Below, one piece after another: positions 16,039 to 51,050 of a stretch of DNA of 64,000 bases (position 1 is its first letter; every line of letters begins with the position of its first letter). A model generated the notes under the pieces. The model was not told the DNA's origin and did no database searches. It worked only from the letters and a program-made list of their open reading frames with translations. Made by a program: the position numbers and the translations under genes. The stretch is taken from positions 1-64,000 of the forward strand of contig CALWLT010000023.1 in the NCBI GenBank assembly GCA_944381615.1. The letters are read 5' to 3'. This DNA is from an uncultured Lachnospiraceae bacterium. GTDB taxonomy: Bacteria; Bacillota; Clostridia; Lachnospirales; Lachnospiraceae.

Positions 16039-16224
16039 ATGAGTCCAGCCGAAGAAATGAAAACAGAAAAAGACAGAGCGGCCGGCCCGGCCGCTCTCCT
16101 GGCAGTCCCCGCGGTCTTTATCCAGGCCTGGGAGCCGCCGGACGGCCTTTCCCGGGCCCTCGATCAGGGCACTATCTTTCGCAGCCTCTGCCTGCCCTTC
16201 TGGAAAGGAGGCGATCGGACATGA
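16039..16224 (+). CDS. cotJA: Spore coat-associated protein CotJA
   Basis: Small protein of 61 residues carrying the CotJA core: AVFIQAWEPPDGLSRALDQGTIFRSLCLPF matches the family pattern of an aromatic/Gln-Trp segment followed by GTIF and a short hydrophobic end. AAAGGAGG lies upstream. Its end overlaps cotJB by 4 bp. It is the first gene of a complete cotJABC operon. Confidence 0.82.
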   Translation: MSPAEEMKTEKDRAAGPAALLAVPAVFIQAWEPPDGLSRALDQGTIFRSLCLPFWKGGDRT

Positions 16225-16487
16225 CGAACCGCACGTCTCTTCTCAGGGAGATCGACGAGATCAGCTTCGCCCTGAATGATCTGACGCTCTATCTGGACAC
16301 GCACCCGGACTGCAGCGAGGGCCTGAACGAATTTGCGGCGCTGGCACCCCGGCGCGCCGCGCTTTTAAAGGAATTTTCCGAGCGTTTCGGGCCGCTTACC
16401 ACCGACTGCCTGGCGCTGCCGAGCATGATAAAAGAGCCGTTTCGCTGGTGCGAAGAACCGGCTCCGTGGGAAGGAGGAAGCTTCTGA
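16221..16487 (+). CDS. cotJB: Spore coat protein CotJB
   Basis: Protein of 88 residues. Motifs typical of CotJB are visible: LLREIDEISFALNDLTLYLDTHPDC, RRAALLKEFSERFGPLT and the C-terminal PFRWCEEPAPWEGG. Start overlaps cotJA and stop overlaps the cotJC ATG (TGATG), so the three are translationally coupled. CotJB is a coat component produced in the mother cell. Confidence 0.9.
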   Translation: MTNRTSLLREIDEISFALNDLTLYLDTHPDCSEGLNEFAALAPRRAALLKEFSERFGPLTTDCLALPSMIKEPFRWCEEPAPWEGGSF

Positions 16488-17101
16488 TGTGGAATTATGA
16501 AAAAAGACTGCAGTTTCCGGTCCGCATCCGGACGCGCTGCCCGAAAACCGCCTCGCTGATTCTCAGCCAGTTCGGAGGCCCCGACGGAGAGCTGGCCGCC
16601 TCCATGCGCTATCTCTCGCAGCGCTATTCCATGCCGGACCGGCGCATTTCAGGCCTCTTAACCGACATCGGGACGGAAGAGCTGGCCCACCTGGAAATGA
16701 TCGGGGCCATCCTCTTCCAGCTGACCCGCGGCATGAGCACGGAAGAAATGGAGACGGCCGGCTTTACCGCCTACTATATCGACCACACGGCGGCCGTCTG
16801 GCCCGCCGCGGCCGCCGGCATCCCGTTTAACGCCTGCGAATTCCAGTCCAAGGGCGACGCGATAACCGATCTCACGGAGGATCTCGCGGCCGAACAGAAA
16901 GCCCGCACCACGTACGACAACCTGCTGCGCGTCATCGACGATCCGGACGTCAAGGCGCCGCTCCGTTTTCTGCGCGCGCGGGAGATCGTTCATTTCCAGC
17001 GCTTCGGAGAAGCGCTGGAACATCTGAAGCTCACGCTCTGTCAGAAAAACTGCTACTGGTTTAACCCCTCCTTTGAAAAGGAGCCGGAAACCAGGGCCTG
17101 A
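16487..17101 (+). CDS. cotJC: Intact CotJC, manganese-catalase-like spore coat protein
   Basis: Ferritin-like diiron/dimanganese-fold protein of 204 residues. Landmarks: MWNYEKRLQFPVRI at the start, SQFGGPDGELAASMRYLSQRY (about 28-48), the metal-ligand helix TDIGTEELAHLEMI, GIPFNACEFQSKGD and REIVHFQRFGEALE. The ATG at 16487 overlaps the cotJB stop and gives the conserved MW N-terminus. This intact paralogue is the reference for the split cotJC of the second operon. Confidence 0.93.
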   Translation: MWNYEKRLQFPVRIRTRCPKTASLILSQFGGPDGELAASMRYLSQRYSMPDRRISGLLTDIGTEELAHLEMIGAILFQLTRGMSTEEMETAGFTAYYIDHTAAVWPAAAAGIPFNACEFQSKGDAITDLTEDLAAEQKARTTYDNLLRVIDDPDVKAPLRFLRAREIVHFQRFGEALEHLKLTLCQKNCYWFNPSFEKEPETRA

Positions 17102-38445: not shown

Positions 38446-38953
38446 CTATTTTGTTTTTACCGAATCAAATTCCGGATTAAACGCGTAGAAATTTTTGCTG
38501 TCCAGGTGTTCCTGGAGATTTCGCAGCGCTTCTCCGAAGCGCTGGAAATGGACGATCTCGCGTTCCCGCAGGAAACGGATGGGATCGCAGACTTCCGGAT
38601 CCTTGACCACGCGCAGGATGTTGTCGTACGTGGAGCGGGCCTTCTGTTCGGCCGCGAGATCCTCCGTGAGATCGGTAATCGCGTCGCCCTTGGACTGGAA
38701 CTCGCAGGCATTGAAGGGGATCCCCCCGGCGGCCTGCGGCCAGATCGCCGTCGTGTGGTCGATGTAGTACGGCCCGAACCCGGACTCCACCACCTGCTCC
38801 GGCGTCAGGTTCTTCGTCAGCTGGCGGACGATGGCGGCAATCATTTCCATGTGCGCCAGCTCCTCGGTGCCGATATCCGTCAAAAGCCCCTTTTGCATCG
38901 CGTAGGGCATGGTATAGCGCTGGGACAGATAGCGCATGGAGGCGCCTATCTCC
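38446..38953 (-). CDS. cotJC: cotJC of second operon, 3' part (split by intervening element)
   Basis: Encodes the C-terminal 168 residues of a CotJC protein: EIGASMRYLSQRYTMPYAM, the metal-helix TDIGTEELAHMEMI, GIPFNACEFQSKGD, REIVHFQRFGEALR and the end. It aligns colinearly with the intact CotJC at 16487-17101 from residue 35 on. Upstream codons enter the element and reach the in-frame stop of the Gfo/Idh gene, so no proper start exists here; the first internal ATG is at 38937. The missing N-terminal 34 codons lie at 50394-50293. With the element removed, the two parts join in frame inside the shared GGPDG codons. As it stands the gene cannot give full CotJC. Confidence 0.95.
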
Positions 38954-38968
38954 CCATCCGGCCCGCCG
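38954..38968. repeat. Left attachment core (attL) of the cotJC element
   Basis: CCATCCGGCCCGCCG, identical to 50294-50308. To its left is cotJC coding sequence, to its right element DNA. The element arm (38969-38988) contains GCAGAAACAGATTGTC, the near-inverse of the right-end arm. Confidence 0.93.
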
Positions 38969-39009
38969 CATGGCAGAAACAGATTGTCCGCCCGCTGCGG
39001 CTTCTCCCG

Positions 39010-40008
39010 TCACGCCTCGAACGGGTACGTCACGCCCATCTTGCGGCGAATCTGATCCAGAATTTCCATCATAGTCAGGATCTCGTGATGCGGCATCTGC
39101 GGGCACTCCTTAAGCCCTGCCGCCAGCGCGTGCCGGCAGGCCTCAAACTGATAGACGTAGCCGGTCTGCGTCTGCTCGGGCCGGGGGACCCGCTTTACCA
39201 GCCTGTGATCCCGGTCATAGATTTCCATCCATTCAAAATTATTGACATTTCCCACGATCAGGTACCCGTCGGTGCCGTAGACAATCCCCGTCCGATCTGA
39301 GGGCCCGTTTACCGAGGCATAAATATTGCAGCAGATCTCCCGTCCGCCGCTCTGAATGGTCATGGCGATCTGATCCTCCAGATCCACACCGGTATCCGCC
39401 TTTTTCGCCTGCGCGCAGATCCCGGTTATCTCATCGCCGGCAATCAGGGAGACAAAGGTCAGCGGATAAATCCCCACGTCCAGCAGCGCGCCGCCGGCCC
39501 GCTCCGGATCCAGAATCCGCGGCTTGTCTGTAACCGGATACCCCAGATTCGCGCTGATTGCGTTGACCTTACCGATCACGCCGCTCCAGACCGTCTCGCG
39601 AATCGTCTCCGCCATCGGCATATAGCGCGGCCAGATTGCCTCCGCCAGGAATACGCCCGCCTGACGGGCCTTTTCCAGGAGCGCCCGGGCCTGCGCGGCG
39701 TTGGCCGTAAAGCTCTTCTCTACCAGAACCGGCTTTCCGGCGTCGATGCACATCCCCGCGTGAAGCGCGTGATGCGAGTGCGGCGACGCGACATACACCA
39801 GATCCACCTCCGGATCGCACAGAAGCGCCTCGTAGGTTTCGTATACCCTGCAGTGCGGAAATTTCCCGGCAAACGCATCCGCGCCTTCCCGGCTGCGGGA
39901 GGCCGCGGCGCAGACCTCTATATGCTCCATGGTGCGGATGGCCTCTGCCATCTCCACCGCCATCAGCCCCGTCCCCAGAATCCCGACTCTGAGCCTGTTC
40001 TCTCCCAT
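39010..40008 (-). CDS. Gfo/Idh/MocA-family NAD(P)-dependent oxidoreductase
   Basis: Protein of 332 residues. The Rossmann motif GILGTGLMAVEMAEAI is at the N-terminus, then VASPHSHHALHAGMCIDAGKPVLVEKSF, which holds the family EKP-like signature (EKS here). A C-terminal alpha/beta domain with AGGALLDVGIYPLTF follows. Members oxidise or reduce sugars, inositols and trans-dihydrodiols. Last gene of the element operon. Its stop is 42 bp from the element boundary and in frame with the cotJC 3' part. Substrate unknown. Confidence 0.9.
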   Translation of the reverse strand: MGENRLRVGILGTGLMAVEMAEAIRTMEHIEVCAAASRSREGADAFAGKFPHCRVYETYEALLCDPEVDLVYVASPHSHHALHAGMCIDAGKPVLVEKSFTANAAQARALLEKARQAGVFLAEAIWPRYMPMAETIRETVWSGVIGKVNAISANLGYPVTDKPRILDPERAGGALLDVGIYPLTFVSLIAGDEITGICAQAKKADTGVDLEDQIAMTIQSGGREICCNIYASVNGPSDRTGIVYGTDGYLIVGNVNNFEWMEIYDRDHRLVKRVPRPEQTQTGYVYQFEACRHALAAGLKECPQMPHHEILTMMEILDQIRRKMGVTYPFEA

Positions 40009-40127
40009 TGTTTTCCATCCCTTCCGCGCGGCCGCAGATCCGCGGCCGGCGCCGTTTTTCTTTCATTATAAACCGCGGAAAAGAAAAAGGGAAGAAGCAG
40101 CTGCCGCCGCATGTTACAACCCGCATG

Positions 40128-41093
40128 TTACAGATTCACGACGTGAACCGGATTTCCCGCCAGAAACGCGCGGATGTTTTCTTCTGTCATCTCCATAATC
40201 CGCTGGCGCGCCTCCCGGGCCGCCCAGGAAATATGCGGCGTAATGATGCAGTTTCGGGCTTTCAGAAGAGGATTATCCGGCCGGATCGGCTCCTCTGACA
40301 CCACGTCCAGCGCGGCGGCATATACCTTCCGGCTGTTCAGCGCCTCCGCCAGATCCGCCTCCCTTACCAGCTGCCCCCGGCTGTTGTTAATCAGGATCAC
40401 GCCGTCTTTCATCCCGGCGATCGTCTCGCGCCGGATCAGCCCCTCTGTTTCCGGAAGCAAGGGACAGTGCAGAAAAATCACATCCGCACGGGAGAACAGC
40501 TCCTCCTGGCTGACGTACTTTGCCACCTGCCGCCCGGCATCGCTCTCCCGCGCGTCGCTGGCAATCACGTTCATCCCCATGGCCCCGAGGATCCGGGCCG
40601 TCGCCTGTCCGATTCTTCCCAGGCCGATGATTCCCGCCGTTTTTCCGGACAGCTCAATCATGGGATAATCCCAGTAACACCAGTCCGGGCAGCTCTCCCA
40701 GCGCCCTTCCCGCACCGTCCGGTCGTGATGGCCGTAATGCGCGCAGATTTCCAGCAGAAGCCCCACGGCATACTGGCTGACCACCTGCGTCCCGTATGAG
40801 GGAATGTTCACGACCGGAATTCCCTTTGCGGCAGCGTACGCGCCGTCCACGATATTATATCCCGTCGCCATGACCGCGATCAGCCGGATCTGCGGGCAGG
40901 CGTCTATCGTTTCCCGGGAGACCGGCGTTTTATTCGTGACCACAATCTCGGCCGCTCCGATCCGCCGCGCCACAAGAGACGGATCGGCAACCGGCGTCCG
41001 GTCGTAAACCGTCAAATCGCCCAGCTTCTCCAGTCCTTCCCAGCTCAGATCGCCGGGATTCTCCGTATATCCGTCCAGTACCACAATCTTCAT
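40128..41093 (-). CDS. D-isomer-specific 2-hydroxyacid dehydrogenase
   Basis: Protein of 321 residues with the split catalytic domain and central NAD domain. Motifs: VVTNKTPVSRETID, GYNIVD, the nucleotide-binding GLGRIGQATARILGAMGMNV, the catalytic Arg region NNSRGQLVREADL, the Glu-containing DVVSEEP and ITPHISWAA with the catalytic His. It is most like glycerate/hydroxypyruvate-type dehydrogenases. In this cluster it could reduce or oxidise a 2-oxo/2-hydroxy acid produced by the aldolase. Confidence 0.9.
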   Translation of the reverse strand: MKIVVLDGYTENPGDLSWEGLEKLGDLTVYDRTPVADPSLVARRIGAAEIVVTNKTPVSRETIDACPQIRLIAVMATGYNIVDGAYAAAKGIPVVNIPSYGTQVVSQYAVGLLLEICAHYGHHDRTVREGRWESCPDWCYWDYPMIELSGKTAGIIGLGRIGQATARILGAMGMNVIASDARESDAGRQVAKYVSQEELFSRADVIFLHCPLLPETEGLIRRETIAGMKDGVILINNSRGQLVREADLAEALNSRKVYAAALDVVSEEPIRPDNPLLKARNCIITPHISWAAREARQRIMEMTEENIRAFLAGNPVHVVNL

Positions 41094-41120
41094 GTTTCCC
41101 CGTCTCCTTTTTACGTCTTA

Positions 41121-41240
41121 TGCGCGGCCGGATCCAGCCGTCTTTCCGCCTGCGCGGCCGGGTCCGGCCTTCTCTCAGCCCGTGCGGCCGGGTCCGGCCA
41201 TCTCTCAGCCCGCGCGGCCGGATCCGGCTGTTTCCTGCCG
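41121..41240. repeat. 30-bp tandem repeat (about 4 copies)
   Basis: GCGGCCGGRTCCRGCC recurs at 41124, 41154, 41184 and 41214, an exact 30-bp period. It spans the spacer between the dehydrogenase and aldolase genes and the last codons of the aldolase. Each unit contains a GGCCGGRTCCRGCC inverted repeat. Confidence 0.85.
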
Positions 41241-42029
41241 CAGCCCGGCGGCAATCTCTTTCATCTTCGCCCCTTCCCGGTTCCAAAATGTTTTCAGAAT
41301 CGCCAGCTGATCGCCGAGCGCGAAATCCTTTACCCCGAGATCCGCGTAATATCCGGCCTCTGCCGCAGACTGGATCTCGCACCGGGGCCTGACACCGTGG
41401 GCCAGGGCCGCCGCGATACACCTGCGCTCCGCCTCCTTTACCTCCTCTTCGTGCTCCGCCCGGTTCCAGCCTCTGCTCATACAGTAATCATTCGGTCCGA
41501 ACTGGATCAGATCCACGCCGGGAACGGAACAGATCTCGTCGATCTGTTCCACGGCCTCTTCCTTTTCGATCATGAAGCAGAGCACGATCTCCTCCAGCCG
41601 CTTTGCGTGCTCCATCGCCGGGATATGCGACTGGCCGCCGATATATCTCCCGTTCGGATAGCCGAAGATCCCCGTTCCTCCCGGCTTCCTGGGTTTTACC
41701 ATGCTAACGCTCTCTCTTACCTGATCGGCATTCAGATGATCCACAAACAGGATCCCCTGAAAACCTGCCTGGATCGCCTTCTGCGCCACATAGCCCCGCC
41801 CCTGAAAATCCACTTTGATCATCGTCCCCATCTTTCCCAGCTCCGCCGCGCGCGCCAGATTGGGCAGATCCGTAAAGTCATACGGCGCGTACTCCGCCAG
41901 GAATTCCACATAATCAAAATTTCCGCTCTGCCCGATTACCTCCGTAAAAAACGGATTGGTGCTCCAGATCCTGGTTGAAACCAGCGGAAGCTGATGATCC
42001 AGATGATAGCGCAGCCTGTTTTCTCTCAT
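41205..42029 (-). CDS. HpcH/HpaI-family aldolase/citrate lyase-like protein
   Basis: TIM-barrel protein of 274 residues. Key segments include MIKVDFQGRGYVAQKAIQAG, GILFVDHLNAD, VLCFMIEKEEAVEQIDEI (metal-ligand Glu) and GVDLIQFGPNDYCMSRG (metal-ligand Asp). Class II aldolases of this family cleave 4-hydroxy-2-oxo acids to pyruvate and an aldehyde. Here it probably acts on a sugar-acid-derived intermediate. The start at 42029 follows AAAGGA. The C-terminus runs into the 30-bp repeat array. Confidence 0.85.
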   Translation of the reverse strand: MRENRLRYHLDHQLPLVSTRIWSTNPFFTEVIGQSGNFDYVEFLAEYAPYDFTDLPNLARAAELGKMGTMIKVDFQGRGYVAQKAIQAGFQGILFVDHLNADQVRESVSMVKPRKPGGTGIFGYPNGRYIGGQSHIPAMEHAKRLEEIVLCFMIEKEEAVEQIDEICSVPGVDLIQFGPNDYCMSRGWNRAEHEEEVKEAERRCIAAALAHGVRPRCEIQSAAEAGYYADLGVKDFALGDQLAILKTFWNREGAKMKEIAAGLRQETAGSGRAG

Positions 42030-42124
42030 AAATCCGCATCCTTTCATTCATCCTGCCTCGTTCCCGTTTCATCCGGCTTTTTCTCTCTTTACCGCCTTAA
42101 CGGGCGCCTCTCTTCTCTTAGCGA

Positions 42125-43462
42125 TCATCCGGCTTTTTTTCTGCAGGCGACCGCCAGGGAGAGCAGGCCGGCGGCCGCCTCGTCCTTCATCGCGGACAGG
42201 CGGCACGGCTTTCCGGAAACGCGCCGGATTCGATCAACCAGCTCCGGCGTTTTCCAGTTGACCCCGCCCGCGCAGACGATCCCCGTTACCTGTTCCGCCG
42301 AACCGGCCAGAATCCGGATATAATCCCAATACGTCTCCGCCATGTTCTGATACGCGGCGGCAAAGAGCGTCCCCAGACGCAGATTCTGCCGGGAAATCCC
42401 GGTTATGGCCCCTCCGCCCGGAAAAAGCGAATTGCGGTAAAAATTCATATCAACCCTGAGCCCCTCCGGCTCCTCCCCCGCAAGCGCATGGATCGTCTCC
42501 CATACCTCCGGCTCGGAAAGGGATTTTCCCGTTACCTGTTCCGCCGCTTCCTGTATAAAATGAATCAGTACCTGAAGGTTCCGGCCGGACGGCATGTCCG
42601 AGATCGTATACAGATACCGGTTTCCAAAATAGGGCCGTATCTCATACGGTCCGGGCAAAAACTCCGCCGAGGGGCGGATGACCTGGGCGGCCGTCGCCGT
42701 ATTGATGACAACCTCCCCCTCCCGGACGCTGCTGCCCAGCACGGCCGTCTGCATGTCCCCGTAGTCCGGATACACCCGGATCCGGCATCCCTCTTCCTGA
42801 TAAATCCCGCAGACCTGAAAATCTTCTTGCGCCACCTCTGGAAACGACAGGCGGCTCAATCCGCAGGTTTCCAGCAGCTCCGCCGCCAGGCACTGTTTCT
42901 TTACATTCAGGATTCCAACCGGCGCCAGGCTTTCCGCATGAGCGATGTTTCGCCCCGTCAGCGAATGGATCAGATAGGAGCCCAGCGTGTAGAGCGTCCC
43001 GTCCGCCATCCGCGGTACCTCCTCCCGCAGCAGGGCAAAGAGATTGCAAAGGCCCATGGACGGTTTCAGATAAACCCCGTTTTCCAGCATGTCCTCTCTG
43101 GAAATCTTCTGCTTCAGAAATTCCAGATACGTTGTCCCCCCGCCCGGCACAGGCCGCAGGCAGCGCGTATCCTGCCAGGACACATAGCGATCCGCCCGGC
43201 CCGCCTCCGAGTACACAAAGCCGTGCATCTGGACCGAAAGAAACAGCCCCTCGATACCTCCTCCGGTCTGCCGGACAAATTTCCGGATGAGTTCCCGGAC
43301 GCGGGCCGCGATCAAGCCGGGATCCAGCTCATATGCGTCATCCGGAAGCCCGGCCGCCCGCTCCGGCATCCTCTCCGTCTGCCGGTCCGCAATCCTTCCC
43401 TGCTCTGCATCGATCAGAAACGCCTTGATATAACTGCTGCCAATATCGATGCCGATATCCAT
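42125..43462 (-). CDS. FGGY-family carbohydrate kinase
   Basis: Kinase of 445 residues with two actin-like domains. The N-terminal phosphate motif IGIDIGSSYIKAFLI, substrate-region GLFLSVQMHGFV, and the C-terminal ATP-site VCAGGVNWKTPELVDRI and KDEAAAGLLSLAVA are visible. Members phosphorylate sugars such as xylulose, ribulose or sedoheptulose. By analogy with E. coli lyxK next to yiaKLMNO, an L-xylulose-type substrate is possible but not shown. The start at 43462 follows AAAGGAG. Confidence 0.88.
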   Translation of the reverse strand: MDIGIDIGSSYIKAFLIDAEQGRIADRQTERMPERAAGLPDDAYELDPGLIAARVRELIRKFVRQTGGGIEGLFLSVQMHGFVYSEAGRADRYVSWQDTRCLRPVPGGGTTYLEFLKQKISREDMLENGVYLKPSMGLCNLFALLREEVPRMADGTLYTLGSYLIHSLTGRNIAHAESLAPVGILNVKKQCLAAELLETCGLSRLSFPEVAQEDFQVCGIYQEEGCRIRVYPDYGDMQTAVLGSSVREGEVVINTATAAQVIRPSAEFLPGPYEIRPYFGNRYLYTISDMPSGRNLQVLIHFIQEAAEQVTGKSLSEPEVWETIHALAGEEPEGLRVDMNFYRNSLFPGGGAITGISRQNLRLGTLFAAAYQNMAETYWDYIRILAGSAEQVTGIVCAGGVNWKTPELVDRIRRVSGKPCRLSAMKDEAAAGLLSLAVACRKKAG

Positions 43463-43481
43463 GCCGCACTCCTTTCCTGCC

Positions 43482-44201
43482 TCAGCCAATCAGCGAAAAC
43501 GCACTATTCTCCCCATCCGGCTGCTCTCTGGCCTGCTCGATCCCGCGCAGCACGTCTTTAATCGCCGCTTCCTGCGAATGATAGCGGACATATTCCACCA
43601 CGTCCGGATCCCGGTCCATCAGCATTTCCACGATCTTTTTATGCGATTCATAATAGTCGTGCTCGTTCCTGTCCGGATCCAGCGACGCGTTGAAATAAAT
43701 GAGCGTCGAGATCATCGGGGAGATGGTCCGCATACACTGGATCAGCGTTGCGTTCTCCGTCATCACAAACACTTCGTCGTGGAACCGATCGTGCGCATCC
43801 AGCATCGTCATACGGCGTTCCTCCCGATCTTCGATCTGGCGCACCGAATAAAATTCTCCCACGATCTGAAGCAGCTTCCTGAAATTATTGTTTTTCTTTT
43901 CCAGAATAATCCGGCAGGCCGCGCATTCCAGCACGCTTCGCGTCAGGCACAGATCCTCCAGATATTTATCCGTCACGGCAAGAATCTCCTTGCGTCCGTT
44001 TTCCTTTTCAATCATCAGCCCGTCCGATATCAGGGCGCGGAACACCACCCGCACCGAGCTGCGCGATACGCGGTATTTCTCTGCGATCTCCGTCTCGCTG
44101 ATCCCGGTCCTGTCTTTGTATTTTCCCAGCAAAATATCCCTGCGCATCCCGGACAGGACCATGCTGACCGTTGACTGACGTTCAAATTCCGTTCTTGCCA
44201 T
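43482..44201 (-). CDS. GntR-family (FadR/FCD) transcriptional regulator
   Basis: Protein of 239 residues. The N-terminal winged helix (about 15-75; SETEIAEKYRVSRSSVRVVFRALISDG) is followed by an all-helical FCD domain with metal/ligand-binding His/Asp residues (LDAHDRFHDEVF, RYHSQEA). It lies inside the catabolic operon and is the likely sensor of the pathway substrate. It is a good candidate to bind the TGTCGACA palindromes upstream of the operon. Confidence 0.9.
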   Translation of the reverse strand: MARTEFERQSTVSMVLSGMRRDILLGKYKDRTGISETEIAEKYRVSRSSVRVVFRALISDGLMIEKENGRKEILAVTDKYLEDLCLTRSVLECAACRIILEKKNNNFRKLLQIVGEFYSVRQIEDREERRMTMLDAHDRFHDEVFVMTENATLIQCMRTISPMISTLIYFNASLDPDRNEHDYYESHKKIVEMLMDRDPDVVEYVRYHSQEAAIKDVLRGIEQAREQPDGENSAFSLIG

Positions 44202-44223
44202 ACCCGCTTCTCTCCCTCGTCCT

Positions 44224-45510
44224 TTATTGCCCCAGACTCATCATCGACGGCAGCAGCGTGCTGATCTGGGGGAAGATAACCAGAATGATTAAAGCCACGA
44301 TTAAAATCAGATACCAGGGAACCAGCGCCTTAATCAGTCTCGTCATAGATATTCTACCAACTTTTGACACAGCAAACAAGCATGTTCCGAACGGAGGGGA
44401 AATCACTCCTATCATCAGGTTAAAAACCATGACAATCCCGAAATGGATCGGATCGATCCCGTACGCCATGGCCATCGGAAAGACAATCGGCGTCAGAATC
44501 GTAATCGCGCTGACCGTCTCCATAAACATCCCGACAATCAGGAACGCCAGGTTAAATAAAATCCAGAAAACCCATTTTGAATCGACCACCTGCATCAGCG
44601 ATTCCATCAGCTGCTGCGGAACGTTGGCCCGGATCAGCGCGCTGCCGAAAAAGGTGGACACTGCCAGGAGAATGCAGATCGGACCCGCATCGACAACCGT
44701 CTCCCGCAGCACCTCCAGATAGGAGCGGAGCGAAATCGCCCGGTAAACAACGATCCCCAGAAACGACGCGTACACGACGCAGACGGCCGCCGCTTCCGTG
44801 GGCGTAAAAATCCCCGTATAGATCCCGAGCAGGATGATGACCGGCGTAAAGCACGGCAGAATCCCGTTCTTCAGATCCGTCAGCGTATGATTCCAGGAAA
44901 TAAACGGATCCCGCGGGTATTTCCTGCGCACGGCATAGAGCGTGACCAGGGCCGTCATGCAGAGCGCGATTACCACACCCGGAAGCAGGCCGGCAATCAG
45001 AAGGCCCCCGACCGAAGTTCCCGACACCATCCCAAACACGATGAGCGGCATACTGGGCGGAACGATCGGCCCCAGCGTAGAAGACGCCGCCGTAACCGCG
45101 CAGGAAAAATCCCGGTCATACCCCGCGTCATCCATCGCCTTTACTTCAATCTGGCCCAGGCCGGCCGCATCGGCAATCGCCGTCCCCGACATCCCCGCAA
45201 AGATAAACGAGCCCAGAACATTTACGTGCCCGAGGCCGCCCGGGACGCCGCCGACGATGGCCCGCGCCGCCTTAAACAGCCGATCCGTGATCCCGCAGGA
45301 GTTCATCAGTTTTCCCGCAAACAGAAACAGAGGAATGCAGAGAATCGTAAAGCTGTTAATTCCGTTAATCATATTTGAGGTAATACTCATCCACTTGATT
45401 CCCGTGCTGAGCTGCATGATTACCACCCCCGCCGCCGCAATCGCGTACGGCACCGGGAATCCCAGCAGAAATAAAACGGCCAGAACAAACAAACCCGCCA
45501 CCGGACTCAT
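44224..45510 (-). CDS. dctM: TRAP transporter large permease DctM
   Basis: Membrane protein of 428 residues with about 12 helices. Typical DctM segments: FTILCIPLFLFAGKLMNSCGIT, GSFIFAGMSGTAIADAAGLGQIE, TLGPIVPPSMPLIVFG and the C-terminal GVISPPFGTCLFAVSKV. It is the Na+-coupled translocation subunit. The start at 45510 overlaps the dctQ stop (ATGA); a frame open for 67 further codons upstream is out-of-frame dctQ sequence. Closest functional analogue is YiaN. Confidence 0.95.
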   Translation of the reverse strand: MSPVAGLFVLAVLFLLGFPVPYAIAAAGVVIMQLSTGIKWMSITSNMINGINSFTILCIPLFLFAGKLMNSCGITDRLFKAARAIVGGVPGGLGHVNVLGSFIFAGMSGTAIADAAGLGQIEVKAMDDAGYDRDFSCAVTAASSTLGPIVPPSMPLIVFGMVSGTSVGGLLIAGLLPGVVIALCMTALVTLYAVRRKYPRDPFISWNHTLTDLKNGILPCFTPVIILLGIYTGIFTPTEAAAVCVVYASFLGIVVYRAISLRSYLEVLRETVVDAGPICILLAVSTFFGSALIRANVPQQLMESLMQVVDSKWVFWILFNLAFLIVGMFMETVSAITILTPIVFPMAMAYGIDPIHFGIVMVFNLMIGVISPPFGTCLFAVSKVGRISMTRLIKALVPWYLILIVALIILVIFPQISTLLPSMMSLGQ

Positions 45511-46091
45511 CCTTTCTTCCTCCTTTCTTCCATCTCCAGCTCTTTCCTGATTTTCTCCGTCTCCGCCTCCATCTCCCGCCGGTTCTGCTCTTCCTGCGTC
45601 GGCACCGTCTCCGGCCCGAACATCAGGGAATACGCGCGCAGCAGATTCGCTGCCAGCAAAAGAAAAAACGTGCACAGAATGACCGCGTAGATCCACCACA
45701 TCTGCAGCCACTGGACCGTCGAGCCGCGCAGGTTCCCCCGGAACGCATTCGACATGTTGATATACATGCTGTACAAAAACATGCAGCTGTATCCCGCCAT
45801 CACAATGTGGAAAAGGCCCATCGCAATTTTTCTTCCTTTTTCCGTCAGAAAATCAAACAGAACCGTAATTCTCAGATCCTGGCCTCTCCTCGACGCGATC
45901 GGCCACAGGATAAAGACAAACAGGACATAACAATATCTGGCCATTTCTTCCGTTCCGGAGGTCGCGACCCCCAGCCTTCTGGTCAGAATCTGCAGTACGA
46001 TGATCGCGATAATCACAATCAGGAAAAACACGCACAGATCAATCAGCCGGTTCTCTATTTTTTCTATCGTCCTTTCTATTTTTTCCCGCAT
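45507..46091 (-). CDS. dctQ: TRAP transporter small permease DctQ
   Basis: Protein of 194 residues with four membrane helices (for example LIDLCVFFLIVIIAIIVLQI) and the conserved pattern GTEEMARYCYVLFVFILWPIASRRG. A charged cytoplasmic tail (KIRKELEMEERRKKG) is longer than usual. The start at 46091 follows GAGG; upstream in-frame ATGs lack ribosome binding sites. It pairs with DctM. Confidence 0.9.
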   Translation of the reverse strand: MREKIERTIEKIENRLIDLCVFFLIVIIAIIVLQILTRRLGVATSGTEEMARYCYVLFVFILWPIASRRGQDLRITVLFDFLTEKGRKIAMGLFHIVMAGYSCMFLYSMYINMSNAFRGNLRGSTVQWLQMWWIYAVILCTFFLLLAANLLRAYSLMFGPETVPTQEEQNRREMEAETEKIRKELEMEERRKKG

Positions 46092-46202
46092 ACGGCACCT
46101 CATTTCCAGCCCTTTGCCTTTCAAAAGGGCGGAACGGGAATTCCCCGTCCCGCCCTGTAGATTGCTGCCCCTCATTCATTTCCCCGTAAAGCAGGGGTCC
46201 GG

Positions 46203-47294
46203 TCACTCTGCGGAGCATTCCTCAATCAGCGCCATTACCTCCTCGTAGCTCATCGCCCATTCCCCGGACTCAAACTGAGATTCCCAGAACGGGATGCACT
46301 CCTCTCTTGCCGCTTCCACGTCAAATTCCACAACCTCGCAGCCCGCGTCCTGATAGGCTTTCATCCACTGCTCTTCCTCTGCTTCGCCCTGCTCTTCTCC
46401 CCAGGCGATTGCCTCCTGACCGGCCTTAAGAAGCGCCTCCTGGTACGGTGCGGGAAGCGATTCAAACAGGTCATTGTTCATGCAGATGATCGCCACCTCC
46501 ACCACATGATCGGTATTGATCACATAATTTACCACCTCCGGCACGTTCAGATAGCCGGACTCGCTCAGCGGATTCTCGCACCCCTCTACCACGCCGGTCT
46601 GAATCGAGGTGTAAAGCTCATTCAGAGAAAGCGGAACCGTTACTGCTCCCAGCGCCTGCCATGCGGAATTCCAGAGCGCGCTGGAATTCATCCTCAGCTT
46701 CAGCCCGGAAAGATCCTCCACGCTCTCCAGCTTTTTCGTCGCCACGACCTTCCGCATGCCCCGGTAAAAGCCGCCGCACAGATCCTTCACATGGTACTCA
46801 TCCGCCCATGACTGCCTGACCTGCCGGATCACGTCGCTGTCGTAAACATTCATGTACGTTTCCCGATCCGTAATCATAAACGGCGCCTGCGTCCAGGCGT
46901 AATCGGTCGAATAGAGCCACCAGGGCATGGAACCGGTCCCCACAAATTCCAGCTCCCCGGCCGACAGCTGGCTCATGGAGTCATTCTCTGAGGCCAGCTG
47001 CCCGTCCGGATACACGGTAATCGTAACGGCCCCATCCGTATACTGGCTGGCCAGTTCCGCAAATTTTTCATACGCCTGCACGACAACCGTCGTAGAGCCG
47101 TACGTCGTGGCCAGCGCCCAGTTATACTCCGTGTCAAAGCTCTCTCCCGCCGCGGCCCCTTCCTGAGACGTTTCCCCCTCATTTGCCGCCGTTTCCTGCT
47201 GCGCCTGCGTCTCTGCCGGCTGTGTTCCCCCTGAACACGCCGCAAGATTCAGGACCATAATCCCAATCAAACCGATTGCTATCGTTTTTTTCAT
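46203..47294 (-). CDS. dctP: TRAP transporter solute-binding protein DctP
   Basis: Lipoprotein of 363 residues: signal with the lipobox LNLAACSG, a Gln/Glu/Ala linker, then the two-lobed DctP domain. The conserved Arg that binds the substrate carboxylate is expected in LSGLKLRMNSSALWNSAWQALGAV, followed by LYTSIQTGVVEGCENP. This implies an acidic substrate. Gene context with a YiaK-type reductase suggests 2,3-diketo-L-gulonate or a similar sugar acid. GGAGG supports the start at 47294. Confidence 0.93.
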   Translation of the reverse strand: MKKTIAIGLIGIMVLNLAACSGGTQPAETQAQQETAANEGETSQEGAAAGESFDTEYNWALATTYGSTTVVVQAYEKFAELASQYTDGAVTITVYPDGQLASENDSMSQLSAGELEFVGTGSMPWWLYSTDYAWTQAPFMITDRETYMNVYDSDVIRQVRQSWADEYHVKDLCGGFYRGMRKVVATKKLESVEDLSGLKLRMNSSALWNSAWQALGAVTVPLSLNELYTSIQTGVVEGCENPLSESGYLNVPEVVNYVINTDHVVEVAIICMNNDLFESLPAPYQEALLKAGQEAIAWGEEQGEAEEEQWMKAYQDAGCEVVEFDVEAAREECIPFWESQFESGEWAMSYEEVMALIEECSAE

Positions 47295-47350
47295 GCGCTT
47301 CTCCTCCTTCTGTATTATCCTGAGATCTTTCAGAAATCTTCTCTCCCGTC

Positions 47351-48364
47351 TCATTCCCGCAGCATCTCTGACACCCTGTTCCAGATGCTTTCTTCCACCG
47401 GGATCCCGTGCGCCAGGTTTTCCTCCCGGGCAATGGACTCCGGCTCGCCCGGATATAAAACCGGCTTCTCCGGATCCACCGGTGCCGCGCTTTTTACGTC
47501 CCTTAAAATCTCCTCGACGATCGTCTCCGTCCGCTTTGGTGGGTTCCCTTTCGCGGGATCGACGGCGATCATGATCTGGGTCAGCCCGAGCTCCTCCTCA
47601 AAGGTCCCGATCCGGAATACCGGATTTCCGTCTGTCAGCACGGTTGCAATCAGATCCAGCGCGATCGAGATTCCGCTCCCCTTCCAGTATCCCATCGGGA
47701 GGACCCGCATCGACTGCTCGATCTCCTCCGGATCCGTCGTCAGCCTTCCCTGCGTGTCGTATCCCCCGTACACCGGGAGCTGACGGCCCTGGAATTTGTA
47801 CGATTCCATCTTCCCGTACGAAAACTGGGCGACCGCACAGTCGATTACCACGTGCTTTCCGTTTGCGCGCGGAATGGCAAACACGATCGGGTTGTTTCCG
47901 ATCTTCACGTCCTTCCCGCCCCACGGCGGCATATTCGGCAGCGTATTCGTCCAGCAGATTCCGATGCAGCCTCTGTCCGCCGCCTGAAAGCCGTAGCTTC
48001 CCCCGCGCATCCAGTGATTATTGTTCCCCAGCGCCACGATCCCGACGCCGTACTGAAACGCCAGATCACAGGCCCGATCCATCGCTTTTTTCGCATTCAG
48101 CGGCCCGAACCCCCGGTGTCCGTTCCACCGTTCCAGCGCGCCCGCCTGAAGCTCCGCCGTCGCCTCCGCCTGCGGATCGATGAGCCCCCGATCCAGATAA
48201 TCGATTACCCGCGGGAACCGGTTTAACCCATGCGAATATACGCCGCAGAGGCTGTTTCCGGCAAAAAGCTCCGCCGCCTCCAGCGCCCGGGATTCTGAAA
48301 ATCCTTTTTGCTCCAGAATCCGTTTTAAGACATCTCTCATCTCCTGATACGAAACTCTTCGCAT
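47351..48364 (-). CDS. dlgD: 2,3-diketo-L-gulonate reductase-like (YiaK) LDH2/MDH2-family dehydrogenase
   Basis: NAD(P)-dependent dehydrogenase of 337 residues in the malate/L-lactate dehydrogenase 2 family. It carries segments I recognise from E. coli YiaK: CGVYSHGLNRFPRVIDYL (catalytic His), NNHWMRGGSYGFQAADRG, GICWTNTLPNMPPWGGK, GRQLPVYGGYD and VLPMGYWKGSGISIALD. It should reduce 2,3-diketo-L-gulonate to 3-keto-L-gulonate, though related sugar acids are possible. First gene of the element operon. Confidence 0.87.
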   Translation of the reverse strand: MRRVSYQEMRDVLKRILEQKGFSESRALEAAELFAGNSLCGVYSHGLNRFPRVIDYLDRGLIDPQAEATAELQAGALERWNGHRGFGPLNAKKAMDRACDLAFQYGVGIVALGNNNHWMRGGSYGFQAADRGCIGICWTNTLPNMPPWGGKDVKIGNNPIVFAIPRANGKHVVIDCAVAQFSYGKMESYKFQGRQLPVYGGYDTQGRLTTDPEEIEQSMRVLPMGYWKGSGISIALDLIATVLTDGNPVFRIGTFEEELGLTQIMIAVDPAKGNPPKRTETIVEEILRDVKSAAPVDPEKPVLYPGEPESIAREENLAHGIPVEESIWNRVSEMLRE

Positions 48365-48414
48365 ATGTTTTTTTTGTCTCCTTCTCTGCGTACCGCGATC
48401 TTCCTGGTTTCCAT

Positions 48415-48500
48415 ATATGTCGACATATCATAAAAACTGTCGTTTTTATGATCTCATCATACTCTCTTATCCGTCGGCGGTCAATATGAATTGTCGACAA
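48415..48500 (-). promoter_or_regulatory. Promoter and operators of the element catabolic operon
   Basis: Minus strand TTGACC (48484-48479), 17 bp, TATGAT (48461-48456). Perfect palindromes TTGTCGACAA (48491-48500, just upstream of the -35) and ATATGTCGACATAT (48415-48428, in the leader) share TGTCGACA. Between them, an 11-bp inverted repeat ATCATAAAAAC / GTTTTTATGAT (48427-48452) covers the start site. This fits dual-operator control by the GntR protein at 43482. Confidence 0.78.
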
Positions 48501-48516
48501 ATATATTTTCTGATTT

Positions 48517-48735
48517 TTAGTGATTCTGCTGTGGATTTTCTGCTTTTTCTTCCCTTTTCTGTTCTGTTTTTTCTTCCGCGCTCCCGCCATACCCCGCGGC
48601 CCGCATCATCCGCTCCAGCAGCGCCTCCCCCGCGCGTTTCTGTTCCTCTTTCGTAAGGCCGTCCATCTCCCTGCTTTCAGCCAAAACCTCCCCGTTTCCG
48701 GTCAGAAGCCGGTTGCAGAACGCCGCTTCCTTCAT
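48517..48735 (-). CDS. Small helical protein divergent from the recombinase; possible recombination directionality factor
   Basis: Protein of 72 residues from the ATG at 48735, preceded by GGGAGAG. It has a compact N-terminal half (MKEAAFCNRLLTGNGEVL), a helical middle (LTKEEQKRAGEALLERMMRAAGYGG) and a Lys/Glu-rich tail. I do not recognise a family. It is the only small gene next to the recombinase, transcribed away from it. Large serine recombinases usually need a small directionality factor for excision, often encoded nearby, so this is a candidate by position only. Confidence 0.55.
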   Translation of the reverse strand: MKEAAFCNRLLTGNGEVLAESREMDGLTKEEQKRAGEALLERMMRAAGYGGSAEEKTEQKREEKAENPQQNH

Positions 48736-48820
48736 GCGCTTCTCTCCCTTCGCTCTTTCTTTTATTGTACCGGCGCGCGCCCCGGCGCATGACGCGATCT
48801 TCTTTTTGCGCCGCATCCGT

Positions 48821-48828
48821 CATACGAT
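48821..48828 (+). promoter_or_regulatory. Candidate mother-cell -10 upstream of the recombinase
   Basis: CATACGAT lies 30 bp before the recombinase ATG. It differs by one base from the sigma-E -10 CATACAnT. No good -35 is seen, so this is tentative. In B. subtilis spoIVCA is sigma-E dependent. Confidence 0.28.
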
Positions 48829-48857
48829 CGCTGTAACAGAGCAGCGGGAGGCCGGAT

Positions 48858-50279
48858 ATGAAACGGGGAGCCGCCTACATCCGCGTCAGCACCGACGAGC
48901 AGATGGATTTAAGCCCGCAGTCCCAGCTGGACGCCATCCGCGCGTACGCCGCGCAGCAGCAGATCGATCTGAAGGAACCATGTATTTTTATGGAAAAGGA
49001 GGGACGCAGCGGGAGAAAGGCACAGAACCGGCCGGAATTTCAGCGGATGATCGCCGCCGCCCGGACAGTTCCCCGCCCGTTCGACGTGATTCTTGTCTGG
49101 AAATTTTCGCGCTTTGCACGCAACCAGGATGAGAGCACATTTTATAAGGGGATTCTGCGGAAAAAGCTGGGAATCGAAGTGATCAGCATCTCCGAGCCGG
49201 TTATGGAAGGGATGTACGGCCGGCTGATCGAACTGATTATTGAATGGCAGGATGAATTCTATTCCTACAATCTCGGCGCGGAGGTGCGCCGCGGCATGAC
49301 AAAGAAAGCGCAGCAGCACGGCTACCAGCTCCCGCCCTGTCTGGGCTATGCGGCGGCCGGAGGCGGGCGGCCGTTTCTCATCCTGGAAAACGAATATGCC
49401 GCCGTCGAGCGCATTTTCTCCCTCTATGGCGAAACGGGGCTGGACCGGACGGCCATCGCCCGCCGGCTCAACGAAGAAGGGTTCCGCACCAAGCGCGGCC
49501 GGCTCTTCGACCGGCGCTCCGTGACCCGCGTCCTGGAAAATCCCTTCTACGGCGGGACCGTCGTCTGGAACGGCCTCTCGTTTCCGGGTGGGCACGAGGT
49601 AAAACAGAGCGTGGCGGCCCTCTATCCCCTCTGCCAGAAACGGCTCCGGGAGGAAAAAAAGGCGCCCCGGCGGCGCGACGCCTCCGCCTGCCGCCACTGG
49701 GCGTCGGGCCTTCTGCGCTGCTCCGTCTGCGGCGCGTCCCTTTCCTACCACCCGGATCCGTCGGGAAAAGGCGGCGTCTTTACCTGCTGGAAATACGCCC
49801 GCGGCCTTCACAGAGAATCCTGCTCCATCTCCGCCGCCCGCGCGGAAAACGCTTTTTTCCACTCGCTCGATCAGCTTTTCCTCCCCGCTTTGCCAGAATC
49901 CGGACGGCGGTACGCCCCATCCGCTCCGGACCCCACAGAGGAAAAGGCGCGGCTGATCCGGCAGAAAAAATCCCTGGAACAAAAAAGAAAGCGCATCCGC
50001 GCGGCCTACGAGGCAGGCGCCGACTCCCTGGAAGAATACCGGGAACGCTGCCTGCGCCTGCAGACAGAAAAAGAGCAGATCGAAGCCTCTCTCTGCTCTC
50101 TGAACAGGCAAACGGAGTCCTTTCCCTCCCTTGCCATCCGCGGCGGCGCCGATCTCCTGCGCGCTGCGCAGGTGCCGCCCGCCGTCAAAAGCGCCGCGCT
50201 GCGAAGCATCCTTACCGCCGCGATCTACGACCGGGCGGCCGATCAGATTACCTTCTGCTACCGGCTGCCACAGAGCTAG
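48858..50279 (+). CDS. Large serine recombinase (SpoIVCA-type) of the cotJC element
   Basis: Protein of 473 residues. The resolvase domain (about 1-150) starts AAYIRVSTDEQ, with the catalytic Ser in RVST, and has WKFSRFARN. The recombinase domain (about 160-275) contains GYQLPPCLGYA, TAIARRLNEEGFRTKRG and VTRVLENPFYGG. A zinc ribbon (LRCSVCGASL ... FTCWKYARGLHRESC) and a coiled coil (about 355-425) follow. Size and domain order fit SpoIVCA and phage serine integrases. The ATG has GGGAGG upstream. The stop lies 15 bp before the right att core. It should excise the element by attL x attR recombination. Confidence 0.95.
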   Translation: MKRGAAYIRVSTDEQMDLSPQSQLDAIRAYAAQQQIDLKEPCIFMEKEGRSGRKAQNRPEFQRMIAAARTVPRPFDVILVWKFSRFARNQDESTFYKGILRKKLGIEVISISEPVMEGMYGRLIELIIEWQDEFYSYNLGAEVRRGMTKKAQQHGYQLPPCLGYAAAGGGRPFLILENEYAAVERIFSLYGETGLDRTAIARRLNEEGFRTKRGRLFDRRSVTRVLENPFYGGTVVWNGLSFPGGHEVKQSVAALYPLCQKRLREEKKAPRRRDASACRHWASGLLRCSVCGASLSYHPDPSGKGGVFTCWKYARGLHRESCSISAARAENAFFHSLDQLFLPALPESGRRYAPSAPDPTEEKARLIRQKKSLEQKRKRIRAAYEAGADSLEEYRERCLRLQTEKEQIEASLCSLNRQTESFPSLAIRGGADLLRAAQVPPAVKSAALRSILTAAIYDRAADQITFCYRLPQS

Positions 50280-50394
50280 ACAATCCGTTTCTTCCATCCG
50301 GCCCGCCGTACTGGCTCATAATAAACTGGGCGATTTTGGGATTGGGCCGGGTAATCCGGACCGGATACTGAAGCCGTTTTTCATATCTCCACAT
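50248..50394 (-). CDS. cotJC: cotJC of second operon, 5' part (split by intervening element)
   Basis: The ATG at 50394 follows GGGGAGGTG and lies 3 bp after the cotJB stop. Codons 1-34 encode MWRYEKRLQYPVRI through SQYGGPDG, colinear with the intact CotJC N-terminus (MWNYEKRLQFPVRI ... SQFGGPDG). After GGPDG the frame crosses the att core into element DNA, adds 14 unrelated residues (RNGLSSSVAAGSRR) and stops at TAA 50250-50248, antisense to the recombinase 3' end. The matching 3' part is at 38953-38446; joining them gives a predicted 202-residue protein. Confidence 0.95.
   Translation of the reverse strand: MWRYEKRLQYPVRITRPNPKIAQFIMSQYGGPDGRNGLSSSVAAGSRR
50279..50308. repeat. Right attachment site (attR): element arm plus core
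   Basis: Core CCATCCGGCCCGCCG (50294-50308) is identical to 38954-38968. The element arm GACAATCCGTTTCTT (50279-50293) is the near-inverse of the left-end arm. The centre of symmetry of the joined arms falls on the CC at 50303-50304, the likely crossover dinucleotide. Confidence 0.93.
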
Positions 50395-50397
50395 CGC

Positions 50398-50652
50398 TTA
50401 CACCTCCCCTTCCCAGGGCCAGGAACGCGTGATCCAGTCCCACTGCTGCGGATTTTCGCTGGCATCGATCGAAAGCGGGCCGAAAGCGTCCTCATAGGCC
50501 TTTACGGCCTCGCGGCGCATGGCCGTTACCGTGCGGTAAAATTCGAGCGCCTGCCGATCGTCCGGATGCGTATCCAGATACAGGATCACGTCGTCCATGG
50601 CGAAGCTGGCCTCGTCGATTCGTTTCATCAGAGCTCTCGCTGTCTCATTCAC
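50398..50652 (-). CDS. cotJB: Spore coat protein CotJB (second operon)
   Basis: Protein of 84 residues: LMKRIDEASFAMDDVILYLDTHPDD, RREAVKAYEDAFGPLS and the end WITRSWPWEGE match CotJB and the paralogue at 16221. Its ATG overlaps the cotJA stop by 4 bp, and its stop is 3 bp before the cotJC ATG, so the operon is intact up to the element insertion. Confidence 0.92.
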   Translation of the reverse strand: MNETARALMKRIDEASFAMDDVILYLDTHPDDRQALEFYRTVTAMRREAVKAYEDAFGPLSIDASENPQQWDWITRSWPWEGEV

Positions 50653-51050
50653 CGGCAGGCACCTCCCATCATAAACGGCAGATCCAGAGCCGGGAAAATG
50701 GTTCCGCGCACAAACCCGGCCTCCAGCGAATACGGCTGCTGCCAGCGCTGCACGGGAACGTACGCCATCCCGATCGGGAAATGCGAGGGATCACAGGCGC
50801 CGTTTCCCGACGGCGCAATCTCTGCGGCGGCCGCTTTACCGCTTCCCTGCGGCATCATCGCCGCTTCATCCGGCTTTGCCGGGCACACCGCCCGGTTCGC
50901 GTCCGGGCGCGGCGGCGCGATCACGTCAATCCGGCCCGCCGCAAAGGCCGGCGGCACACAGCCCGGCATCTCCCAGGGCCGCGGGCCGCACTCGGCCTGC
51001 GGCCGGCGCGGCCCCCTTCTGTCCGGACAGGGTTCCTGATAACAATTCAT
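50649..51050 (-). CDS. cotJA: Spore coat-associated protein CotJA, long form (second operon)
   Basis: Protein of 133 residues. The last 40 residues hold the CotJA core (FPIGMAYVPVQRWQQPYSLEAGFVRGTIFPALDLPF). The preceding 90 are Pro/Cys/Arg-rich and have no counterpart in the 61-residue paralogue at 16039. The ATG at 51050 is chosen because GGAAGG lies 9 nt upstream; a TTG three codons earlier is possible. CATAAGATA upstream (within 51060-51095) resembles a sigma-K -10 without a matching -35. Confidence 0.82.
   Translation of the reverse strand: MNCYQEPCPDRRGPRRPQAECGPRPWEMPGCVPPAFAAGRIDVIAPPRPDANRAVCPAKPDEAAMMPQGSGKAAAAEIAPSGNGACDPSHFPIGMAYVPVQRWQQPYSLEAGFVRGTIFPALDLPFMMGGACR

What the first reader, a model, noticed from the sequence alone, without database searches (positions are those of the whole stretch)
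38446..51050. cotJC is split by an 11.3-kb intervening element whose precise removal restores the gene in frame
Codons 1-34 of a second cotJC are at 50394-50293 (ending GGPDG), directly after cotJA-cotJB. The remaining codons, beginning EIGASMRYLSQRY, are at 38953-38446. Both ends carry the same 15 bp, CCATCCGGCCCGCCG. Collapsing the two copies to one gives QYGGPDGEIGASMRYLSQ with no frameshift, a 202-residue protein matching the intact 204-residue CotJC at 16487 along its whole length. Known cases of this architecture (skin in sigK, SP-beta in spsM, elements in gerE) are excised in the mother cell to rebuild a sporulation gene. I know of no described cotJC case.
Basis: partly seen in the sequence, partly recalled or inferred. 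Interest (0 to 1): 0.97.

Follow-up and report, generated by a model that had tools for sequence, protein, structure and literature searches.

The report
Spore gene split by excisable elements
In this bacterium a spore-coat gene is cut in two by an 11.3-kb DNA element that carries its own recombinase and is predicted to be cut out precisely during spore formation to rebuild the gene; the same gene is interrupted at the same few places, sometimes twice, in dozens of related genera, which makes a likely and apparently undescribed case of programmed genome rearrangement directly testable.

Summary
A second cotJC is split after codon 34 by an 11,340-bp element bounded by a 15-bp direct repeat; it encodes a serine recombinase beside the 5' exon and a sugar-acid catabolic operon, with no phage structural gene recognised. 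Collapsing the repeat gives an open 202-aa CotJC. The pattern is far larger. Of 183 family genomes with a cotJC match (299 searched), 69 hold complementary pieces, 13 of them (two weakly) three pieces, at four recurrent sites at or near the metal-ligand motifs of this Mn-catalase-like protein. Splits recur across class Clostridia, including a genome I identify as Ruminiclostridium cellulolyticum H10. No comparable split was seen in SpoIVA (103 genomes) or PurC (61). Where it can be tested the split copies are under strong purifying selection: 30 synonymous and 0 nonsynonymous differences between two congeners; dN/dS at most 0.08 among five species sharing one ancestral element. So the exons are used, and excision by the resident recombinase, most likely in the mother cell, is the best mechanism. 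Excision and timing are inferred, not observed; promoter evidence is weak; in four genomes one junction does not rejoin in register. Ten paper searches found no cotJC case.

The parts
50649..51050 (-). cotJA, first gene of the interrupted operon (ORF listed to 51059 from a TTG; the ATG is at 51050)
   Evidence: ORF, sequence; cotJA-like small ORFs cluster with it
50398..50652 (-). cotJB
   Evidence: ORF; homologues lie directly before cotJC in other loci
50293..50394 (-). cotJC 5' exon, codons 1-34, ending GGPDG
   Evidence: listed there as G000:C23:50275-50394
50294..50308 (-). 15-bp core repeat at the 5' exon (one recombinant attachment site)
48858..50279 (+). serine recombinase, 473 aa; Resolvase, Recombinase and Zn-ribbon domains; predicted to catalyse the excision
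   Evidence: Pfam; PDB resolvase-domain relatives; relatives of 34-58% identity beside split cotJC
48517..48816 (-). 99-aa ORF; its inner part belongs to a small-protein family found in other A-site elements; candidate recombination directionality factor (prediction only)
   Evidence: it was one of four seeds of the profile; no Pfam, NCBIfam or PHROGs match
47351..48364 (-). cargo: 3-dehydro-L-gulonate 2-dehydrogenase family
   Evidence: above the NCBIfam cut-off
44224..47354 (-). cargo: TRAP transporter (DctP 46203-47354, predicted small permease 45507-46175, DctM 44224-45711)
   Evidence: for DctP and DctM; the small permease rests on position and length only
39010..44201 (-). cargo: GntR/FCD regulator 43482-44201, FGGY kinase 42125-43489, HpcH/HpaI aldolase 41205-42047, 2-hydroxyacid dehydrogenase 40128-41093, Gfo/Idh oxidoreductase 39010-40008
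   Evidence: Pfam, all above the gathering score
38954..38968 (-). 15-bp core repeat at the 3' exon (the other recombinant attachment site)
38446..38953 (-). cotJC 3' exon, beginning EIGASMRYLSQRY, to the native stop
16039..17101 (+). second, uninterrupted cotJ operon with the intact CotJC paralog (ATG at 16487)

Best explanation
This is an intervening element in a spore-coat gene: an 11,340-bp segment with its own serine recombinase and a metabolic operon splits cotJC, and it is predicted to be excised precisely between its two 15-bp repeats during sporulation, most likely in the mother cell, so that a full-length CotJC can be made. Shown: the split, the repeats, the open joined frame, the recombinase, and the same architecture at four recurrent sites in many relatives. 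Shown for relatives that share an insertion, not for this element itself: the exons evolve under strong purifying selection while split. Inferred: that the recombinase makes the excision, that a small co-encoded protein sets its direction, and that it happens only in the mother cell, so that the spore genome keeps the element and its cargo.
For: 15-bp repeat and open joined frame. 34 splits with both sides fetched (from 32 genomes): 31 share an in-register core of 4-15 bp and join without an internal stop; the other three share 2-3 bp in register (read by eye). A serine-recombinase ORF lies in the fetched stretch of all 34, one of them (G155) only 273 aa long. Complementary pieces in 69 of 183 cotJC-bearing genomes, hand-classified from the listings; 46 of the 82 splits lie on one contig, all colinear and on one strand; 52 of the 69 genomes have no full-length copy listed. 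Controls: SpoIVA 99 of 103 full length; PurC no element split in 61. Selection: 30 synonymous and 0 nonsynonymous differences between G299 and G301, both split at the same site, against 38.5 and 14.5 in their intact paralog; five species sharing an ancestral 4.7-kb element have cotJC dN/dS 0-0.08 and an intact recombinase at 0.09-0.135. Known relatives of this architecture are excised in sporulation (PMC5595907, PMC5025042, passages).
Against: No read, junction or expression evidence was available. The window's genome has an intact CotJC paralog, as have 16 more of the 69 genomes. No relative found shares this very insertion, so its own age and selection are untested. Mother-cell-type promoter motifs upstream of the recombinases are only weakly enriched: 14 of 45 against 8 on the reverse strand and a shuffle mean of 6.1, maximum 11; the window's recombinase has no strict match. 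In four genomes of genus g325 (G329, G499, G500, G501) the second junction has no in-register core; three of them could rejoin in frame only with about four codons lost. C. difficile cotJC-type mutants are reported to lose catalase activity without a coat defect (PMC11222575, passage), so the gene may be dispensable in some hosts.
Confidence: 0.82

Rival explanations
1. cotJC is simply a favoured integration target for prophages, conjugative elements and cargo elements: the host tolerates its loss, and no sporulation-linked excision is needed or happens.
For: Several recombinase families use the gene; some elements of about 39 kb are prophages with tail and lysis genes; many genomes keep an intact paralog; CotJC is reported dispensable for coat formation in C. 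difficile (PMC11222575).
Against: Exons stay under strong purifying selection across species that inherited the split, the recombinase too; a middle exon lying between two elements is conserved as well; 52 of 69 genomes have no full-length copy listed.
Confidence: 0.12
2. The pieces work as separate polypeptides, or are joined after transcription or translation, and the DNA is not rearranged.
For: The 3' piece has an internal ATG and could be translated alone (38446-38937).
Against: The breaks fall at or near the metal ligands inferred from Mn catalase, so no piece holds the whole site; direct-repeat cores and recombinases accompany the splits, and no intein or intron was recognised in the ten ORFs scanned.
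Confidence: 0.03
3. The split genes are decaying pseudogenes left by insertions.
For: Four g325 genomes have an out-of-register second junction; one recombinase (G155) is short; some relatives carry frameshifted cotJC without an element (G037; G369).
Against: No internal stop in 31 joined genes; dN/dS at most 0.08; 30:0 between G299 and G301.
Confidence: 0.02
4. Assembly or binning artefact.
For: The window's genome is in 45 contigs, and 36 of the 82 splits have their pieces on different contigs.
Against: The window split lies within one contig; five g325 genomes show two splits along one chromosomal contig; controls on the same genomes show no such pattern.
Confidence: 0.01

Closest known systems
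gin element in gerE of Bacillus cereus ATCC10987 (PMC5595907; introduction and passages seen)
   Same: 28.6-kb element without phage-related genes, serine recombinases, inside a short sporulation gene of the mother cell, reported to be excised in sporulation.
   Different: Target gerE in a bacillus, three recombinases. Here the target is cotJC in Clostridia, one recombinase and a catabolic operon; excision is not shown.
skin in sigK of B. subtilis and C. difficile (PMC5025042 passages)
   Same: Serine recombinase in the element, direct-repeat attachment sites, interrupted mother-cell gene; in C. difficile the directionality factor, not the recombinase, is under sigma-E and SpoIIID.
   Different: sigK is a sigma-factor gene and has one interruption site in the cases I know (recalled); cotJC is a coat gene with at least four sites and up to two elements in one gene.
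SP-beta in spsM, vfbin in spoVFB, yin in yabG (PMC10747680 and PMC6957869, passages)
   Same: Elements interrupting sporulation genes and rejoining them on excision.
   Different: Described as prophages or prophage-like. Some cotJC elements are prophages, but the window's and several small ones are not recognisably phage.
Heterocyst elements of cyanobacteria, such as the fdxN element with XisF (recalled; only a weak XisF profile match)
   Same: Developmental excision by a recombinase in a terminal cell; cargo genes inside.
   Different: Different phylum, genes and differentiation.
CotJC and manganese catalases (PDB 1jku, 4r42)
   Same: The joined protein aligns along nearly its whole length, including the five residues that I recall as metal ligands.
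   Different: The gene is whole in those; here the four break sites lie at or near the ligand codons.

Membership tests
Sporulation gene-intervening element (skin, SP-beta, gin, vfbin, yin kind) | Element lies inside a gene of sporulation | tested here: met
   Joined CotJC matches CotJC orthologues and Mn catalases; it follows cotJA and cotJB
Sporulation gene-intervening element (skin, SP-beta, gin, vfbin, yin kind) | Direct repeats at both ends whose collapse restores the frame | tested here: met
   15-bp repeat, 202-codon open frame
Sporulation gene-intervening element (skin, SP-beta, gin, vfbin, yin kind) | Site-specific recombinase encoded in the element | tested here: met
Sporulation gene-intervening element (skin, SP-beta, gin, vfbin, yin kind) | Exons remain under selection in the interrupted state | tested here: inconclusive
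   Met for relatives sharing an insertion; for the window's own insertion no relative shares it, only its dN to congeners is not raised
Sporulation gene-intervening element (skin, SP-beta, gin, vfbin, yin kind) | Excision occurs, as joined gene and circle | not testable with these tools
   No reads or cultures
Sporulation gene-intervening element (skin, SP-beta, gin, vfbin, yin kind) | Excision confined to the mother cell by a sporulation-controlled recombinase or directionality factor | tested here: inconclusive
   Promoter motif scan weak; candidate directionality factors only by position and conservation
Large serine recombinase | Resolvase catalytic domain plus Recombinase and Zn-ribbon domains in one protein | tested here: met
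   PDB resolvase-domain relatives
Prophage | Phage structural, packaging or lysis genes | tested here: not met
   Ten other element ORFs: no Pfam/NCBIfam phage family in those scanned; PHROGs gave only four matches of unknown function, to the metabolic proteins. Some other cotJC elements do meet it
CotJC (Mn-catalase family) | Metal-ligand residues present in the joined protein | tested here: met
   E35, E65, H68, E136, H169 align with 1jku E35, E66, H69, E148, H181; that these are the ligands is recalled

The most novel reading that the evidence does not exclude
cotJC is a class-wide, multiply interrupted bacterial gene: across Clostridia unrelated serine-recombinase elements (prophages, an ICE-like element, and small islands with metabolic cargo such as cellulases) have docked at four sites marked by its metal-ligand codons, and in many species the gene exists in the germ line only in two or three pieces that are assembled into a working catalase gene by successive excisions in the doomed mother cell, while the spore keeps the islands. 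The elements are thus inherited stably and hidden in a gene that vegetative cells do not need.
Probability: 0.7. Interest if true: 0.97.

Novelty: new variant of a known kind. Interest (0 to 1): 0.93.

Why it matters
Developmentally excised elements in spore formers are known from a handful of genes. Here one short coat gene holds them at four sites, in 69 of 183 cotJC-bearing genomes of one family sample and in many further families, in 11 to 13 of the 69 twice in one gene. That would make programmed gene assembly a common part of clostridial sporulation, explain why cotJC often looks truncated or missing, and show how metabolic islands (here a sugar-acid pathway, in R. cellulolyticum the cel44O and cel5I cellulase genes) can sit stably in a chromosome. 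It can be tested in a tractable laboratory strain by PCR.

Tried and rejected
Recombinase relatives found in named genomes (13 loci) do not flank cotJC, so recombinase homology alone does not predict the target. A sigma-E/sigma-K-type motif was sought upstream of 45 recombinases and gave only weak enrichment; I do not rely on it. Small ORFs were clustered to find directionality factors: 7 of 7 C-site recombinases are preceded by one conserved small protein, and a second family accompanies A-site elements (four of its hits are the seeds, L026 and L116 are independent strong hits, L089 and L117 weak, L088 and L029 not significant, and members also occur near related recombinases outside cotJC). 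Phage records hold only relatives of the recombinase below 60% identity (best-listed row 34.5%). Frameshifted or contig-edge cotJC (G037, G369, G011, G016) and a divergent paralog in two pieces (G265) were left out of the census. Eleven genomes with an unpaired piece (G048, G228, G173 for its missing middle, G272, G225, G208, G057, G132, G280, G212, G184) were not counted for that piece; G173 is counted for its complementary A pair. G097 and G106 count as three-piece only through weak third pieces. The class-level list was cut at E 1.4e-25, so I give no rate for it. The PurC list was also cut, below its orthologues.

Literature: ten searches. Papers seen in passages: PMC5595907 (also its introduction), PMC10747680, PMC6957869, PMC10083194, PMC11222575, PMC3551867, PMC4976890, PMC5025042. 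Others in listings only. The word cotJ does not occur in the main text of PMC5595907, PMC10747680, PMC6957869 or PMC10083194. The library holds open-licence papers only.
Full report
OBSERVATION. The 15-mer CCATCCGGCCCGCCG occurs twice in the 64-kb window, at 38954-38968 and 50294-50308, and not on the other strand. Joining the flanks at one copy gives a 202-codon CotJC with no stop. The 5' exon follows cotJA-cotJB directly and both exons are on the minus strand. The element is 11,340 bp, 58.0% G+C against 59.4% for the window. The same genome has a second, uninterrupted cotJ operon at 16039-17101.

CONTENT. Reading from the 5' exon: a serine recombinase on the opposite strand, then a 99-aa ORF, a 3-dehydro-L-gulonate 2-dehydrogenase, a TRAP transporter, a GntR/FCD regulator, an FGGY kinase, an HpcH/HpaI aldolase, a 2-hydroxyacid dehydrogenase and a Gfo/Idh oxidoreductase. 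PHROGs matches to these ORFs are few and of unknown function. So this is a recombinase with a sugar-acid catabolic operon, not a recognisable prophage.

RELATIVES IN THE GENUS. Among eight genomes of the genus, four have an intact orthologue 84-89% identical to the joined gene; the window's is split after codon 34; G222 is split near codon 136, about 20 kb apart; G299 and G301 near codon 64, 2.8 kb apart. These are different sites in one gene with different recombinases.

CENSUS. Of 299 family genomes, nearly one per genus, 183 have a cotJC match. The listings of all 183 (G000 and G222, 59, 61, 61) were classified by hand: 69 genomes have complementary pieces at a site; there are 82 such splits (A, codons about 28-34: 31; B, about 61-68: 30; C, about 134-136: 12; D, about 172-176: 9); 13 genomes have two splits, of which G097 and G106 rest on weak third pieces, leaving 11. 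46 of the 82 have both pieces on one contig, all colinear on one strand. 52 of the 69 genomes have no full-length copy listed.

JUNCTIONS. For 34 splits with both sides fetched, 31 share an in-register core of 4-15 bp and join without an internal stop; where a second element follows, that one has to be joined as well. The other three share 3, 2 and 2 bp in register, read by eye; two bases are what I recall as the serine-recombinase crossover. A serine-recombinase ORF of at least 250 aa lies in the fetched stretch of all 34; that of G155 is only 273 aa. Sites go with recombinase families: one main family at A, two at B, one with DUF4368 at C, one at D. Single-locus elements run from 2,370 to 16,883 bp; others span about 36-42 kb, and by coordinates up to 87 and 117 kb. 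Four of the five elements of about 39-42 kb that I sampled carry tail or lysis genes (G227, G138, G047, G014; the one protein tried of G223 matched only a family of unknown function). Small elements carry single cargo genes such as a sulfate permease or a hemerythrin.

WHY THESE SITES. The joined protein aligns with Mn catalases. The residues that I recall as metal ligands in 1jku fall at E35, E65, H68, E136 and H169; cores at A lie just before E35, at B around E65 and H68, at C on the codons up to E136, and at D three to seven codons after H169. The recombinases thus seem to target the gene's least variable codons; that is inference.

CONTROLS. In 150 genomes of the same family SpoIVA, a mother-cell gene 2.4 times longer, was found in 103; 99 hits are full length. 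The other four are an N-terminal truncation (G042), closely spaced pieces on one contig (G097), two contig edges (G105), and one C-terminal hit whose N-terminal part was not found (G121). PurC has 61 genomes at 41% identity or more; the exceptions are a contig edge (G006) and overlapping, partly inverted pieces in a contaminated genome (G005).

SELECTION. G299 and G301 share the B-site split. Their joined cotJC differs by 30 synonymous and 0 nonsynonymous changes, their intact paralog by 38.5 and 14.5. The window's split copy is no faster than intact orthologues (dN 0.08-0.10 to the four intact congeners, 0.01-0.10 among those), while its intact paralog is faster (0.16-0.20). No relative shares the window's own insertion, so its age is unknown.

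OUTSIDE THE FAMILY. In a class-level sample 130 of 196 genomes match, many with pieces at the same sites (list cut). Of 20 such loci fetched, 13, from 13 families, have a serine recombinase in the fetched stretch and five show both exons; one (G369) is a frameshift, and in the rest the far side was not fetched or no recombinase was seen. In genus g325 none of 11 genomes has a full-length orthologue listed: six have three pieces, four have two, one has only the 5' piece. Five species share one A-site element end to end (84.8-94.3% over about 4.65 kb), so that insertion is ancestral; cotJC dN/dS among them is 0-0.08 over 169 codons of three exons, and the recombinase is intact in all five with dN/dS 0.09-0.135.

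A NAMED STRAIN. In G437 the cargo genes are GH44-dockerin and GH5-CBM17/28-SLH. Their ORFs are 2,586 and 2,793 bp, 871 bp apart and divergent, exactly as reported for cel44O and cel5I of C. cellulolyticum (PMC3551867, passage); a resolvase gene beside cel5I is reported too (PMC4976890, passage). The contig length, 4,068,724 bp, is also the size I recall for strain H10. So cotJC exon 2 lies in the cel44O-cel5I intergenic region, with exons 1 and 3 beyond the two recombinases. Both junctions rejoin in register (6-7 bp cores) to an open frame.

AGAINST. In G329, G499, G500 and G501 the second junction has no in-register core; the three sister species could rejoin in frame on a 3-bp match with about four codons lost from a loop, which is a guess. 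Promoter evidence is weak. Directionality-factor candidates rest on conservation and position only.

MECHANISM. Best reading: the recombinase, helped by a small directionality factor, excises the element in the mother cell, where cotJ is needed; the spore chromosome keeps it. In C. difficile skin the factor, not the recombinase, carries the mother-cell control (PMC5025042, passages), which fits the missing promoter signal at the recombinases but does not prove it.

NOVELTY. Ten searches of the open library found no interrupted cotJC (calls listed under Tried and rejected). The kind of system is known; the target gene, the four sites, the two-element genes and the class-wide spread appear new.

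Noticed in passing
L093 (G060 C68:14663-15088 and 18203-18628): Two tandem 3' pieces of cotJC about 3 kb apart with one 5' piece on another contig; could be a duplicated exon or nested elements.
   Followed up: no
G173 C40, C44, C67: Pieces 1-32, 27-65 and 167-198 suggest three interruptions (A, B, D) in one gene; the middle piece was not found.
   Followed up: no
L098 11326-11424 (R. cellulolyticum H10 as identified): cotJC exon 2 lies inside the cel44O-cel5I intergenic region, whose promoters were mapped without mention of a cotJC exon in the passages seen.
   Followed up: partly
L103/L104, L105/L106, L107/L108, L099/L100: In four g325 genomes the second cotJC junction is out of register although the exons are conserved.
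   Followed up: partly
L081, L082 (G222 C1:24004-44321): The C-site element of a congener has large ORFs that look conjugative (ICE-like), judged from sequence only.
   Followed up: no
G265 C1:414386-416693: A divergent CotJC paralog (47-57% identity) in two pieces about 1.7 kb apart on a single-contig genome.
   Followed up: no
G037 C11:1050-1645; L125 (G369): Frameshifted cotJC without an element, so true decay also occurs.
   Followed up: partly
window 41124-41228: Three 30-bp tandem units near the 3' end of the HpcH/HpaI aldolase gene.
   Followed up: no
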